The notes under the pieces: generated by a model | Databases searched by the model: none | What the model was told of the DNA's origin: nothing | The model's input: only the letters and a program-made list of their open reading frames with translations | In this document: positions 37,647 through 44,072 of the stretch, one piece after another | Layout: every line of letters begins with the position of its first letter | Numbering within the stretch: position 1 is the first letter of the stretch | Source of the DNA: Candidatus Tanganyikabacteria bacterium | GTDB taxonomy: Bacteria; Cyanobacteriota; Sericytochromatia; S15B-MN24; VGJW01 | Reading direction: 5' to 3' | Length of the DNA stretch: 64,000 nucleotides | NCBI GenBank assembly: GCA_016867265.1 | Contig: VGJW01000007.1 | Coordinates: forward strand, 1 to 64,000 | Made by a program: the position numbers and the translations under genes

Positions 37647-39293
37647 CTACCGATACTCCGACATCTGCACCAGCACGACGGTGATGTTGTCCTCGCCCCC
37701 GCGCTGGTTTGCGAGGTTGACGAGCCGCTGGGCGGCGACGACGGGATCGATCGCATCGGTGACAATCTGGTGCAACTCGGGGTCGGTCACATGCCCCGTC
37801 AGGCCATCACTGCAAAGCAGCAGCCAGTCACCCGTCCGCAAGGGACGCTGGTACAGGTCGACCTCGACATTGGGGTAGGTCCCCAGCGAGCGGTAGATCA
37901 GATTGCGTTGCGGGTGGACCAGAGCCTCCACAGGCGTGATCTGGCCCAGTTCGACCAAGCGTCCGACAAGGCTATGGTCCCGCGATACCTTCTCAATGCC
38001 CTGCCGGTTGATCAGGTAGCAGCACGAGTCGCCGACATGGGCGACGTAGACAGTGTGACCGAATACCAAGGCCGTGGTGGCCGTGGTCCCCATGCCCTGC
38101 ATCGCGGGATTGGCGCGCCCGGTGTCGTAGACCCGGGCGTTGGCGAGCTTGACTGCTTGCTGCAGATGCAGCTTGACCTGGCTGGACGGATCTTCACCGT
38201 CTCCGAGCGAGGCCAAGGCATTCTGGACATAGCTCGTGACCTCGTCGACCGTGATAGCCGAGGCAATCTCGCCGGCATTCACGCCCCCCATGCCGTCCGC
38301 ACAGATGTAAAGCCCGAGACCGCTGCTCTGGCCTTGCGCCGTGAAGGTCAACTCGAACACGCCAAGGGCGTCCTCATTGCCCGTCCGCAGCATCCCCACG
38401 TCCGAACAGGTGCCGACCCGCCTGATGGGATTCTGGACCAGCTCGTGAATCTCGGCCCGAAGCTCCGCGCAAGACGAGAAGCGATCGAGCGGGTCTATCG
38501 CCACCAGCTTTCGTACGAGTCGTTCGATGTGCGGATGAATCGCGGGCAAGTAATGGCTGACATCGGTGAAGACGAAGCGGTCTTCCTCGTGTTGCCAGAT
38601 TTCCTCCGGACTGACGGTCGTGAGCAGCTGATGCCAGATCGCCCCCAGCGCAAACAGGTCGGACCGCTCGGTCACACGACCTTCGAGAAAACCGAACTGT
38701 TCGGGTGGAGAGTAGCCCGGCGTGGCATCGACCACATTCTGGACCGGCACCATCGTGGCGCGATGGAAGCCCGTCAGGCGCAATTGGCCGCGGTCCGGCG
38801 ACACCACCAGGTACCGGGGCTGCAAATCGAGGTGAAGGATGCCCGACGCGTGGAGCTGCCCCAATGCGTCACAAATCTGGGCCACCCAGTCGATGGTCTG
38901 CTGGACCGGGATGTCCTCGCCACCGGCCAGGAAGTAGGCCAGATCGCGACCCTCGAGTTGCTCGAGCACCAGATAGGCCCGGTCGTCTTCACGAAACAGA
39001 TCCAGAGCCTTGACCACCGCCGTGGAACGCACGGACCGTAGAATCAGAAATTCGTCCTGGAAGGGATGGCCCGCGGCATCCTCGGCCCACTCGCTGTCTG
39101 CCAAGGCTTCAGGGATGGGCCCCGGCTGCACGGCCCCCCGCTCCTTCACGATGACGGGCAGTTCTGTCATCGTGTCGAGCGCCCGGTACAGGTTGGCCTC
39201 GTGCTTGCTCTCGAGGAATCGGTCGATGCGGTAGCGCCCCCTCAGGAGCACGTCGGGCCCCAAGGGCTCCGGCACGTTCCGTGGCGGACTCAC
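37647..39293 (-). CDS. Pseudokinase-PP2C phosphatase fusion
   Basis: The protein is 548 residues from GTG 39293. This GTG overlaps the kinase stop (GTGA) and has GGAGG 6 nt upstream. The N-terminal half (about 15-280) has a protein-kinase fold but lacks catalytic residues. HRD is HLD and lacks KxxN (HLDLQPRYL), DFG is TGF, and the Gly-rich loop is absent. The C-terminal half (about 300-548) is a complete PP2C: TGNEDALGVF, CADGMGG, AHVGDSCCYL, CSDGLTGHV and GGEDNITVV. It should dephosphorylate Ser/Thr proteins. The pseudokinase part may sense a ligand or hold the partner kinase. Confidence 0.92.
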   Translation of the reverse strand: MSPPRNVPEPLGPDVLLRGRYRIDRFLESKHEANLYRALDTMTELPVIVKERGAVQPGPIPEALADSEWAEDAAGHPFQDEFLILRSVRSTAVVKALDLFREDDRAYLVLEQLEGRDLAYFLAGGEDIPVQQTIDWVAQICDALGQLHASGILHLDLQPRYLVVSPDRGQLRLTGFHRATMVPVQNVVDATPGYSPPEQFGFLEGRVTERSDLFALGAIWHQLLTTVSPEEIWQHEEDRFVFTDVSHYLPAIHPHIERLVRKLVAIDPLDRFSSCAELRAEIHELVQNPIRRVGTCSDVGMLRTGNEDALGVFELTFTAQGQSSGLGLYICADGMGGVNAGEIASAITVDEVTSYVQNALASLGDGEDPSSQVKLHLQQAVKLANARVYDTGRANPAMQGMGTTATTALVFGHTVYVAHVGDSCCYLINRQGIEKVSRDHSLVGRLVELGQITPVEALVHPQRNLIYRSLGTYPNVEVDLYQRPLRTGDWLLLCSDGLTGHVTDPELHQIVTDAIDPVVAAQRLVNLANQRGGEDNITVVLVQMSEYR

Positions 39294-40549
39294 GCCGCAC
39301 CTCCCCGCATGAACAGCCACATGAGCAAGGCACCCAGGGCCATCGACACGGGCACCAAGCTGGCCACGAACCAAGGCTGCTGCCAGACCGCGCCGCCGTG
39401 CCGGCCATCCAGGCCATCGGCAAGGGAAGGATCGAGGTTGCGCGCCGTAAGGGCCTTGGCGTGGATCTTGTCGTAGGTCGACGTGTGGTGAGCGGCTATG
39501 TAGCCCTTGCAGCTGGGGCAGAACTGACGCCCCCGCGAGATGCGGACCCCGCAGTGGGGACAGTTCCGAACGGCCCCTGTCTCGTGGCCGCCAAGCAGGA
39601 TGAGTTCGGCGAGCAGCTCGTCACATGTCTGGTAGCGACGTTCGAGCTCGGGCTCCAGCATCTTGGTGATGATGCTCTCCAGAGCCTCGCTGACCTCGTT
39701 GTTCAGCTGACGCACCGGCGGAAAACTGAAGGGCGCCTCGTTCTGCGGGTCACGATTGGTAAGCAGGTAGTGCATCGTGGCACCCAGCGCATAGATGTCG
39801 GTCCGTTGCTCGACCTGACCGCGGTACTGCTCGGGGGGCGCGTAGCCTTGCGTGCCAATCATCGTGCCGCGCGCCTGCGGATTGAAGAATCGAGCGATGC
39901 CGAAGTCGACGAGGTAAATCTTGCCGAAGTGGGTGAGTATCAAGTTGGCCGGTTTCATATCCCGGTAGATGATGGGCGGCTTCTGGTGGTGCAGGTAGGA
40001 CAGCACGTCGCAGCACTGGATCGCCCAGCCAATCACGCTCTTCTCATCGAAGGGGGCCATGCTCTCGTGCATCCGTTGCTCGAGATCCGTGCCCTGGATG
40101 TACTCCATCACCAGGTAATGGCGATTGGCCTCAGTGAAGCGGTCGTAGACCTCGGGGATCGCGTTGTGATCGAGGTTGGCCAGCAGATCGGCCTCACGAT
40201 AGAAATTTTGCGTCGCAATCTCGCGCTGCTCGGGGTCCGTGAAGTGGTCCAGCATCTCCTTGACGATGCAGACCTTGGAACTGAAGCGCGTGTCATTGGC
40301 CAGGTAGATGGCACCCATGCCACCCTGACCCACCAGTTGGGTGATGCGGTACCGCTCCTGCAGAAGCGTCGAGGGGGCAAGAAGGGTGCTGGGCGGCGCA
40401 TACCCCGAGGCCGGTTGCGTCACGGCACCCATGGGCTGGACCGTCACCGCCGCTTTGAGGGGCTTGCCGCAGTCGCAGCAGAACCGGTTTTCCTCGTCGT
40501 TCGGCGTATGGCAGGAAGGGCAGTTTATCTGAGGCACGAGCTCTGGCAC
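39290..40549 (-). CDS. Membrane-anchored Ser/Thr protein kinase with zinc ribbons
   Basis: The protein is 419 residues. An N-terminal zinc ribbon (C10, C13, C24/25, C27) is followed by the kinase domain (about 67-320). The kinase motifs are GQGGMGAIYLA, the Lys in CIVKEM, YRDMKPANL (HRD-type), VDFGIARFF and GTQGYAPPEQY. A second zinc ribbon (CPHCGVRISRGRQFCPSCKG) and one membrane helix near the C terminus (about 392-413) complete it. All catalytic residues are present. The downstream pseudokinase-phosphatase starts within its stop codon, so the two are made together. Confidence 0.94.
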   Translation of the reverse strand: MPELVPQINCPSCHTPNDEENRFCCDCGKPLKAAVTVQPMGAVTQPASGYAPPSTLLAPSTLLQERYRITQLVGQGGMGAIYLANDTRFSSKVCIVKEMLDHFTDPEQREIATQNFYREADLLANLDHNAIPEVYDRFTEANRHYLVMEYIQGTDLEQRMHESMAPFDEKSVIGWAIQCCDVLSYLHHQKPPIIYRDMKPANLILTHFGKIYLVDFGIARFFNPQARGTMIGTQGYAPPEQYRGQVEQRTDIYALGATMHYLLTNRDPQNEAPFSFPPVRQLNNEVSEALESIITKMLEPELERRYQTCDELLAELILLGGHETGAVRNCPHCGVRISRGRQFCPSCKGYIAAHHTSTYDKIHAKALTARNLDPSLADGLDGRHGGAVWQQPWFVASLVPVSMALGALLMWLFMRGGAA

Positions 40550-40682: not shown

Positions 40683-42231
40683 TCAGGCCTTGTCCACTTC
40701 GACTCCCACGACGTTACGCTCGGCCTTGCTGAACTCGATGCCCACCAACTTGACGGTGATGCCGGGCGCGCGGCACTTGGCTGCGTAGCCTCGCTCCCGG
40801 ATTTGGGCGAGCGCCTTGCCCTCGGCGGGGCCGTCCACCACCTTGAACTCGAGGATGTAGACCCTGCCGGGCACCCGCAGCACAAGGTCGATACGGCCCT
40901 TGCTCGTCGTGTCCTCGGCCCGCAGGTCGAGGGCGAGCGCCGCGAGGTGACTGTAGAAGACGCTGGCGTAGTAGCCCTCGTACTGCGCGATGGCGTTGTT
41001 GCGGTACCCATCGTGCGGGATGCTCGAAAACATCCGGCGGATGGTTGCCTCGACGGCGGTCAGGTCCCCGGCAAGCAGTGCCTCGGTCAGCAGAATCGTG
41101 ACATCACTGGCGACGCCCGGTGCTTGGCCAAGTGCCGGAAGCAGACTCAGGTTCAAGCTGGCCTCGACCTCGCGGTTGGGGTAGCCCAGCGTGTAGACCC
41201 AGCTGCCGGTCGCGACCTCACGGATATCGTGGATGGTCAGGTAACCCGTCTGCCACAGCAGGGCCTCGGGCTCGATGTGGTCGACATCAAAGGCCGACAT
41301 GATCTCGGCGCGGGTTCGCAGCTTGACGAGATCGGGTGAGAAAAACCCCGCCGGGCCAACAGTTCGACAAGAAAAGTCGGGGTCCCCGTCTCGAACCAGT
41401 AGGGTCGGAAGACCCGCTGCTCGAGGTAAAGCAAGACGTCAAAAGGGTTGTAGACGGCTTCCCCGCCCCAGTTGTAGCCGTTGTACCAGAGACGCACCGT
41501 CTTGAGGTCCACGCCGTCCAGTTCGGGGGCAAATACCGTCTCGAGGTCCCTCTGGGTGTAGCCGCACAGGGCCGACCAGCGGGCATCGAGCGTGATGTCC
41601 CGCGCTGGTTCAGGCCCGAGAAGAGGCTCACCTTGCTGAACTTGCTGACACCCGTCAGGAAGACGAACTTGAGGTGGGCGTCCAAGGCCTTCAGGACACC
41701 GTACAGACTGCGCAAGGCATCACGCATCTGCCGTGCCAGAGCAGGCTGGGCCAGGTTGTCGAGGATAGGCTTGTCGTACTCGTCGACCAGGACCACCACG
41801 CGCTGGCCCATGTGGCCGTGCAGGGCCTGAATCAGATGGGCCAGGCGACGGGGCACGGTGGGCCGCGGCTGGTATCCGGGCAGGCCTGCCTCGATGGTCA
41901 GCAACTGGTCTTCGACCATCCCGTGGACGTCCTCCGGCGACTTGCAGAGGCCACGTCCCAAGCTGATCCGAATCACCGGATACTTCACCGACCAGTCCCA
42001 GCGGTCCTCGGCCGCGAGGCCCGTGAACAGGTCCCGGCTGCCCGCGAAGAGCTCCTTGAGCGTGTCGAGGAACAGGCTCTTCCCGAAGCGACGCGGGCGG
42101 GACGAGAAGAACGTCTTGCCCGTCCGCACCAAGTCCACGGCGAACCCCGTTTTGTCGACGTAGTAATGCCCTTCCTCGCGAATCTCGCGGAAGGTCTGGA
42201 TGCCGATGGGCCACCGCTGGGGGGTGACCAT
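40683..42231 (-). pseudogene. AAA-ATPase-like/PD-(D/E)XK protein, two frameshifts
   Basis: Read from ATG 42231, the gene codes for the AAA-ATPase-like domain (PF09820 type). Visible parts include YYVDKTGF, FFSSRPRRFGKSLFLDTL (Walker A region) and VVVLVDEYDKPILDN. After LFSGLNQ the frame breaks near 41600-41604, where one base is missing. The next frame gives DLKTVRLWYNGYNWGG and the middle domain, then breaks again in an A5 run at 41341-41345. The third frame gives the PD-(D/E)XK nuclease part (GRIDLVLRVPGRVYILEFKV). Repairing two single bases restores one protein of about 515 residues. It is either a recent pseudogene or carries sequencing errors, especially at the homopolymer. Confidence 0.88.
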
Positions 42232-42662
42232 GGCCCCATCGTGGCGGATAGGAGAGAGGGTGCGCATGCGTTCGGGCTGGCAACCCCGGCGAAGCGCCAC
42301 AGATGGGCCTTCCGGGCTCTGCCAATCTTACCCGTCGCGGGCCACGGCGGCGTCTCACGAACCGCCAAAGTCCGTCGGCCCCTGAACCGTCCGCGACTTT
42401 CAAAACCCCGGCAATCGGCCCTTGAAGTCCCTCACGGCCCTGATTGCAGGCCATTGCGCCCTGGCCGTAGCCCTGAGCCTGGCTCGCCCAGCGGGCAGGG
42501 CGGACGGCAGGTTTGTCTCCTTGTCCGGTGCTTCGACGAGCGCACACGCGAAAGCCAACACGCCCACGGCAGGCGAACTTTCTAGCCCGGAAGGTCACCC
42601 GCATTGGCATGCTACGCTTGCCAGGGCCGATTTCCACCCCGGGCCCGCATCAAGGATTGAAG
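42232..42662. other. Intergenic region upstream of the ubiquitin-domain gene
   Basis: About 430 bp between divergent genes. No reading frame resembles a protein, and I saw no clear -10/-35 pair. AAGGA at the end serves the ubiquitin-domain gene. Confidence 0.4.
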
Positions 42663-43730
42663 ATGAGAAGCGCCCTTTCCAAGCTCGCATGGGCGTCCAT
42701 GATCTGGGCTTGCCTCACTTTGGTACCGCTCACCGCCGAGGCCATGCAGATCTTCGTCAAGCCCCTGACCGGCCAGGTCCTGACTCTCGACGTCGAGCCA
42801 TCAGACAGCATCGAGACCATCAAGGGCAAGATCCAGGAAAAAGAGGGCATCCCTCCGGATGAACAGCGTCTGATCTTCGCGGGCAAGACCCTCGAGGATG
42901 GTCGAGCGCTCCAAGACTACAACATCCAGAGGGAAAGCACCCTACACCTGGTCATCCGCAAGGTCGAGGCCAGCTTCACGGTGCGCACCTATGCCCCGGC
43001 AACCCTTGCCAGCGGCCCCTTCCCCCTCGATGCCGCCGTCCCGCTGATTCGTCTCGAGGCGGAAGCCTCCGGCTCAGGCCCGGACCTACCCGTGACAGCC
43101 ATGACGATCGTGTTGGCAGCTTCCGCCAGTCCCGGAGACGTGCCGATGCCCGACCCCCTGGTGTCGGTGTACAGAGACGCGGATGGTGACGGCGCGATTG
43201 GGCCAGCGGACGCCGTGATTGCGACAACCGTGACGCCCGCGACGGACAGTGGCACGTTCCAGATAGCCTTCGCGGATCTCGTGCTGCCTGCATCAGGCTC
43301 CCGCTTGATTCTCGCGGCCCGCGTGGATAAGCCGGCTCCCCTCGCCGCCGTTCCGCTGGCTGGTGCCGTGGGCTTCGTGGCCCTTCTGCCGTTTGCGATC
43401 CGGCGCCGGAAGTGGCAGGTAGCGACCTTGTTCCTGATGTCGGGAACCGCCCTGCTCGGCATGTCCGCCTGCTATTACGTGCCACTGGGTGATCTCCGTG
43501 CCGTCACGCTGCCGACGAGCAGCCCGCTCACGGCACATGCGACGCAACCCGAAGCTTCACACCCACCGACCCTGCCCGCCCCCGTCCCGACGCAGGCTCC
43601 CGAGGACGTCCTGCAACCCAAGGCGCTGCGCATCGACCTCACGGGCAGCCTGACGTCGATTGAGGCGACGGGATCATTCACCGGACTGCCGTTGCAAGGT
43701 GTTCCCGTCAGCTTGACCGGGGTGCTCTGA
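42663..43730 (+). CDS. Exported protein with an N-terminal ubiquitin domain
   Basis: The protein is 355 residues from ATG 42663 (AGGA 7 nt upstream). Residues 1-27 form a signal peptide ending TAEA. Residues 28-103 align without gaps to eukaryotic ubiquitin, matching 56 of 76 positions by my count. The Ile44 patch (Leu8, Ile44, His68, Val70) and Lys6, 27, 29, 33 and 48 are kept; Lys11 is Gln and Lys63 is Arg. The C-terminal Gly-Gly is replaced by Glu-Ala, so it cannot be conjugated. Residues 105-222 look like a beta-sandwich with a calcium-loop motif [12 protein letters not shown] (172-183). A helical hairpin (about 226-271) and a Pro-rich tail follow. Secreted or periplasmic; function unknown. 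Confidence 0.93.
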
Positions 43731-43838: not shown

Positions 43839-44072
43839 ATGAAGATCGGCCAGTTCACCCAGAACATCTCGTCCCGCATCCAGGCCGGCAAGAAGGACGG
43901 CAGCCTGTCTCTCGACGAGGCCAAGGGCCTGCGAACCGACCTCCAGGGGATTCGTGGCAACACCGCGGTAGACCGTCTGGACGGGGGCAGCTTCACGAAG
44001 GTCGAGAAGTTGCAGTCCCGCATGAGCCTGGATGACCTGTCCGGCGAGGTCCGCAAGGCCCGGCGCGGCTAA
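43839..44072 (+). CDS. Small helical protein
   Basis: The protein is 77 residues with a strong AAGGAGGAG ribosome site. It is all-helical and charged. The pattern RIQAGKKDGSLSLDEAKGL, then a run to LDGGSFTKVEKLQSRM, resembles the repeated helix-loop units (IxxGxxxGxLTxxEAxxL) of small proteobacterial envelope proteins. No signal peptide is present. It lies 108 bp after the ubiquitin-domain gene and is followed by a terminator hairpin. Function unknown. Confidence 0.75.
   Translation: MKIGQFTQNISSRIQAGKKDGSLSLDEAKGLRTDLQGIRGNTAVDRLDGGSFTKVEKLQSRMSLDDLSGEVRKARRG

What the first reader, a model, noticed from the sequence alone, without database searches (positions are those of the whole stretch)
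42663..43730. A bacterial, exported protein carrying a near-perfect ubiquitin
Residues 28-103 align without gaps to eukaryotic ubiquitin with 56 of 76 identities by hand count. The hydrophobic patch (Leu8, Ile44, His68, Val70) and Lys48 are intact. Ubiquitin this close to the eukaryotic form is rare in bacteria. A known parallel is the secreted ubiquitin of Bacteroides fragilis, which also lacks the terminal Gly-Gly. Here the ubiquitin is the first domain of a larger exported protein, which to my knowledge is a different design. A role in interacting with eukaryotic hosts, predators or prey is plausible.
Basis: partly seen in the sequence, partly recalled or inferred. Interest (0 to 1): 0.92.

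Follow-up and report, generated by a model that had tools for sequence, protein, structure and literature searches.

The report
Exported ubiquitin in a non-photosynthetic cyanobacterium
This bacterium makes an exported, membrane-anchored protein whose front end is an almost complete copy of the eukaryotic protein ubiquitin; the search here shows that it is not a one-off, but one member of a scattered, poorly described group of such proteins found in many bacterial phyla.

Summary
Window 42663-43730 (+) encodes 355 aa: a signal peptide ending A-E-A, then a ubiquitin starting exactly at its Met1 (56/76 identical to human; Pfam PF00240 E=9.5e-26; predicted pLDDT about 97-98; 1ubq 0.5 A). Gly75-Gly76 are lost, so it should not be conjugated. 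A beta-rich region, a membrane segment with RRRK and a Pro-rich tail follow; these have no detectable relatives. The gene lies inside a 138-kb contig with host-like GC3.

One scan of about 85,000 species genomes gave 48 hits across many phyla; 40 of 45 usable loci have an A-x-A-type signal-peptide end exactly before ubiquitin Met1. Many continue into surface modules: IPTL-CTERM, autotransporter barrels, S-layer domains. Carriage is sparse: 4 of 399 genomes in one order; in 386 genomes of this phylum, only this one and an apparent contaminant. I found no paper on the group beyond Bacteroides fragilis BfUbb (open papers only).

The best reading is a conjugation-dead ubiquitin shown outside the cytoplasm at the free tip of an anchored protein. 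A eukaryote-binding role is unproven: across the group the hydrophobic patch is not more conserved than other surface residues.

The parts
42652..42656 (+). AAGGA, likely ribosome-binding site, 6 nt before the ATG
   Evidence: sequence read directly
42663..43730 (+). whole gene, 355 aa
   Evidence: GC3 0.775, like its neighbours (0.75-0.82)
42663..42743 (+). signal peptide, residues 1-27, ending A-E-A directly before ubiquitin Met1
   Evidence: by the (-3,-1) rule and hydropathy; same position in 40 of 45 related loci; no SignalP run
42744..42971 (+). ubiquitin domain, residues 28-103 (fold ends at about residue 99; positions 73-76 are KVEA instead of LRGG)
42972..43343 (+). beta-rich, probably extracytoplasmic domain of unknown family, residues 104-227
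   Evidence: no Pfam/NCBIfam/PDB match; low-confidence beta model, pLDDT 54; no relative in 18 genomes of the class
43344..43415 (+). transmembrane segment (residues 228-246) followed by RRRKW (247-251): likely membrane anchor
   Evidence: Kyte-Doolittle 2.15; no IPTL/PEP/SLH/autotransporter model matches; no exosortase in the genome
43416..43472 (+). second, weaker hydrophobic segment (residues 252-270, ending GMSAC)
   Evidence: read from the translation; below the 1.6 hydropathy threshold; topology uncertain
43473..43730 (+). Pro/Thr-rich C-terminal tail
   Evidence: AF2 pLDDT mostly under 50

Best explanation
A eukaryote-type ubiquitin, probably taken up from a pool already circulating among bacteria, that serves as an exported display module. 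The Sec pathway exports the protein and signal peptidase I cuts at A-E-A|M, so the mature protein begins with ubiquitin's own Met1. The ubiquitin should not be activated by E1 because its GG is lost and the chain continues into a beta-rich stalk and a membrane anchor. It therefore sits folded on the outer side of the cytoplasmic membrane, and most likely works as a non-covalent ligand for another molecule or cell. Shown computationally: the ubiquitin fold, loss of GG, continuous gene, shared architecture. Inferred: signal peptide cleavage, membrane anchoring, ligand role. Not determined: the partner, and whether this member reaches the cell surface or stays periplasmic.
For: Ubiquitin fold and identity. 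A-x-A exactly before ubiquitin Met1 in 40 of 45 related loci, as reported for mature BfUbb (PMC5705921). GG absent here and in 43 of the 45 loci. Related proteins put the ubiquitin at the N-terminal tip with known surface or anchor modules behind it: IPTL-CTERM 10, autotransporter 8, SLH 5, choice-of-anchor U 7 of 40. Sporadic presence, and absence from the syntenic interval of a family relative, fit horizontal gain. D16 in 37/42 and S22 in 39/42 bacterial rows, against E16 and T22 or N22 in the eukaryotic references used.
Against: The window protein has no recognised surface anchor; an inner-membrane segment would leave the ubiquitin in the periplasm. The signal peptide and membrane segments rest on simple rules, not SignalP or TMHMM. 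The tree has only 73 columns and is mostly unresolved; the AU test rejects neither window plus eukaryotes (p=0.133) nor all bacterial rows as one clade (p=0.471), so one bacterial origin is not proven. No functional data exist.
Confidence: 0.55

Rival explanations
1. Eukaryote-directed mimic: the displayed ubiquitin binds ubiquitin-binding proteins of protists or other eukaryotes, for example after uptake, acting as decoy or adhesin.
For: 56/76 identity with L8, I44, H68, V70 and K48 intact in this member. Several carriers come from host-associated or protist-rich habitats by their record titles (rumen and gut MAGs, plant-associated genera, freshwater).
Against: Across the related loci the canonical patch (8,44,68,70) changes at least as often as other surface sites (mean 6.75 against 4.78 changes, P for slower 0.88), and the wider patch even faster. 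Ubiquitin-binding proteins are mostly intracellular, and no injection system is linked to this gene.
Confidence: 0.25
2. Antibacterial ligand: like BfUbb, the ubiquitin acts on neighbouring bacteria, here by contact because it is anchored.
For: BfUbb, with the same signal peptide position and no GG, mediates intraspecies antagonism (PMC5705921). A patchy distribution is typical of such genes.
Against: BfUbb is free and diffusible, this one is tethered. Its target is unknown, so transfer of function is analogy only.
Confidence: 0.2
3. Neutral or structural cap: ubiquitin was recruited only as a very stable fold at the end of a surface protein.
For: Core sites are the slowest (mean 1.4 changes) while the binding patch is not specially constrained; the partner domains vary freely.
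Against: Identity to human ubiquitin stays at 47-68 of 72 for nearly all members, more than fold alone should need. Some non-patch surface sites (D58 patch, F4 patch) look slower than average, though tested post hoc (P 0.02 and 0.05).
Confidence: 0.2
4. Assembly artefact or eukaryotic contamination.
For: Ubiquitin is a classic contaminant; another genome of the phylum (G341) carries it on 3-kb contigs, one with an intron-like break and RLRGG.
Against: Here the gene is in the middle of a 138-kb contig, has a bacterial-type signal peptide, continues in frame, and both halves have host-like GC3 (0.79 and 0.77).
Confidence: 0.02
5. It is the modifier used by the genome's own E1-Ubl-E2-JAB operon.
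For: Such an operon exists on contig C13.
Against: That operon has its own YukD-like Ubl; this protein is predicted to be exported, lacks GG and lies on another contig.
Confidence: 0.02

Closest known systems
BfUbb (ubb, BF3883), Bacteroides fragilis
   Same: Eukaryote-like ubiquitin, bacterial signal peptide cut so that the mature protein starts at ubiquitin Met1, no terminal Gly-Gly (PMC3352274, PMC5705921)
   Different: BfUbb is a free small secreted protein, 63% identical to human; this one is 56/76 (74%) and is the first part of an anchored 355-aa protein
Exported ubiquitin fusions found here in other bacteria (L006-L053, e.g. Paracidovorax, Acidovorax, Methylotenera, Saccharibacillus, Cohnella, Pseudovibrio, Chlorobiaceae)
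   Same: Signal peptide ending A-x-A at Met1, N-terminal ubiquitin, variable C-terminal part, mostly no GG
   Different: Many carry IPTL-CTERM, autotransporter, SLH or Ig-like modules; the window has an unmatched beta-rich domain and a plain membrane segment
Secreted ubiquitin extension proteins of cyst nematodes (Globodera rostochiensis)
   Same: Signal peptide in front of ubiquitin (as cited in PMC5705921)
   Different: Eukaryotic; a 12-aa extension is cleaved off; a plant effector
Bacterial E1-E2-Ubl-JAB operons
   Same: Ubiquitin-related, and one occurs in the same genome
   Different: Conjugation-type systems with their own Ubl; not linked to this gene

Membership tests
Ubiquitin (PF00240) | Sequence and beta-grasp fold of ubiquitin | tested here: met
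Ubiquitin (PF00240) | C-terminal Arg-Gly-Gly for activation and conjugation | tested here: not met
   positions 73-76 are KVEA and the chain continues
BfUbb-type exported bacterial ubiquitin | Signal peptide whose cut exposes ubiquitin Met1 | tested here: met
   A-E-A before Met1 by rule and by the related loci; cleavage itself not tested
BfUbb-type exported bacterial ubiquitin | No terminal Gly-Gly | tested here: met
BfUbb-type exported bacterial ubiquitin | Free-standing small secreted protein | tested here: not met
   252 further residues follow
BfUbb-type exported bacterial ubiquitin | Antagonism of related strains | not testable with these tools
   needs cultures
IPTL-CTERM / exosortase substrates | IPTL-CTERM motif and an exosortase in the genome | tested here: not met
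   no model match for the window member; no PF09721 in the genome
Autotransporter passengers | C-terminal beta-barrel (PF03797) | tested here: not met
   no match for the window member
S-layer (SLH) anchored proteins | SLH repeats (PF00395) | tested here: not met
   no match for the window member
Bacterial E1-E2-Ubl-JAB systems | Ubl encoded beside E1, E2 and JAB | tested here: not met
   the operon is on C13 with its own YukD-like Ubl

The most novel reading that the evidence does not exclude
Bacteria of many phyla share an undescribed class of display proteins in which a eukaryote-derived, conjugation-dead ubiquitin is a mobile tip domain exchanged between different surface anchors; the window is its only clean case found in Cyanobacteriota, with a new stalk and anchor.
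Probability: 0.45. Interest if true: 0.75.

Novelty: new variant of a known kind. Interest (0 to 1): 0.58.

Why it matters
As far as I could find, exported bacterial ubiquitin has been studied experimentally in one species, where it antagonises sister strains by an unknown mechanism. The loci collected here suggest that exported ubiquitin arose or spread in many phyla, usually with its N-terminus set exactly at Met1 and often at the tip of an anchored protein. That makes a testable question: what does ubiquitin do outside a bacterial cell, and is its target bacterial or eukaryotic?

Tried and rejected
Contamination: rejected from contig length, GC3 and the in-frame signal peptide. A C-terminal family: Pfam, NCBIfam, PDB, class-wide searches and two AF2 models gave nothing firm; the 124-residue model was too poor for a fold search. 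A shared membrane tail in class relatives: matches at E 0.01-1 looked unrelated where I read them; three fetched regions were not read. Exosortase sorting: none in the genome. Origin by tree: 73 columns, unresolved; AU tests inconclusive. Phage carriage: no hit in annotated phage records; one IMG/VR contig (L093) carries a signal peptide-ubiquitin ORF near a DNA-methyltransferase/ParB-like ORF. Three plasmid records have matches, including Ruminococcus albus 7 'ubiquitin family protein'.

Full report
Observation. The ORF at 42663-43730 (+) encodes 355 aa. Pfam PF00240 scores E=9.5e-26 and the PDB search aligns residues 28-99 to ubiquitin at about 108 bits per domain. AF2 on the alignment of related proteins gives pLDDT of about 96-98 over the first 70 residues of the mature chain, and Foldseek matches 1ubq at TMt 0.95, 0.5 A. 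The last four positions are KVEA instead of LRGG, so there is no conjugation site. It is the only PF00240 gene in the genome.

The gene is genuine. It lies in a 138-kb contig of a 2.85-Mb, 98%-complete genome. An AAGGA lies 6 nt before the ATG. GC3 is 0.79 in the ubiquitin part and 0.77 in the rest, against 0.75-0.82 in the larger neighbouring genes.

Host. PsaA/B occurs in 20 of 59 genomes of the phylum and in none of the 18 of its own class; the positive control genome is Synechococcus elongatus. The host therefore belongs to a non-photosynthetic class of, most likely, Cyanobacteriota.

Anatomy. Signal peptide 1-27 ends A-E-A directly before ubiquitin Met1. Residues 104-227 are beta-rich in a low-confidence model but match no family. 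Residues 228-246 are a membrane segment followed by RRRKW. A weaker hydrophobic stretch and a Pro-rich tail follow. If only the first segment spans the membrane, the ubiquitin is on the periplasmic side and the tail is cytoplasmic; the topology is not settled.

Related loci. One scan of genome contigs found 48, including cultured strains with large contigs (Saccharibacillus sacchari, Conexibacter, Cohnella, Pseudovibrio, several Paracidovorax). Of 45 with enough sequence, 40 have an A-x-A-type signal peptide end exactly at ubiquitin Met1 and 43 lack the GG. Carriage is sparse: in 386 genomes of the phylum only this one and G341 exceed the cut-off, and the G341 copies sit on 3-kb contigs, one with an intron-like break and an RLRGG end; in an order sampled around Paracidovorax 4 of 399.

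Origin. The ubiquitin tree is short and poorly resolved. The window sits among bacterial rows (91/90 for a 13-row group) but no starred clade holds it, and AU tests reject neither window-with-eukaryotes (p=0.133) nor all bacterial rows together (p=0.471). D16 and S22 mark most bacterial rows (37 and 39 of 42), against E16 and T22 or N22 in the four eukaryotic references, which I wrote from memory (the human one agrees). In a relative of the same family the interval between the conserved kinase block and the next conserved block holds subtilase-like ORFs and no ubiquitin (the subtilase reading is by eye). All this fits horizontal gain, perhaps from other bacteria.

Function. I counted substitutions per site on a bacterial tree. 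Core sites change least (1.4). The canonical patch (8,44,68,70) averages 6.75 against 4.78 for all non-core sites (P for slower 0.88); a wider patch including 42, 47, 48, 49 and 72 is faster than other surface sites (8.0 against 4.15, P 0.0035), driven partly by positions 49 and 72. The group as a whole therefore gives no sign of selection to keep the eukaryotic binding patch, although this member has it intact. The D58 and F4 patches look slower (P 0.02 and 0.05), but these were chosen post hoc and are uncorrected. Core and patch lists are from my own knowledge of ubiquitin.

What is known. BfUbb of B. fragilis has a signal peptide cut at the same place, lacks GG, inhibits ubiquitination in vitro and mediates antagonism between B. 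fragilis strains (PMC3352274, PMC5705921). Searches of the open-paper library found no description of anchored ubiquitin fusions; subscription papers are not held, so this is weak evidence of absence. Database annotation of at least one as 'ubiquitin family protein' exists.

Verdict. A true, unusual exported ubiquitin; a new variant of a known kind. Its architecture is shared with other bacteria, its own stalk and anchor are new to the searches made, and its partner is unknown.

Noticed in passing
L055 636-3189 (-), genome contig C13: The same genome holds an operon with ThiF-like E1, YukD-like Ubl, E2 (UQ_con, E=1.3e-8) and JAB peptidase, a bacterial ubiquitin-like conjugation system on another contig.
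   Followed up: partly
window 40683-42300 (-): AAA-ATPase_like (PF09820) and PDDEXK_9 (PF08011) domains lie in different frames of what looks like one gene, so the neighbour appears frameshifted.
   Followed up: no
window 43839-44072 (+): A 77-aa ORF just downstream has three further copies in this genome (96%, 79%, 37% identity) and none in the other genomes of its class; two of them lie at contig ends, suggesting a lineage-specific repeat.
   Followed up: partly
L093 2878-3819 (+): A contig of the IMG/VR viral collection carries signal peptide-ubiquitin with a long C-terminal part, near an ORF that looks like a ParB/DNA-methyltransferase; possible prophage carriage.
   Followed up: no
L024, L030, L045: Three loci, from records named Bifidobacterium breve MAG (L024), Actinomycetota (L030) and Actinobacteria (L045), lack a visible signal peptide before the ubiquitin.
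   Followed up: no
window 37647-39374 (-): Protein kinase fused to a PP2C phosphatase domain next to a zinc-ribbon kinase; the pair is conserved in family relatives.
   Followed up: partly
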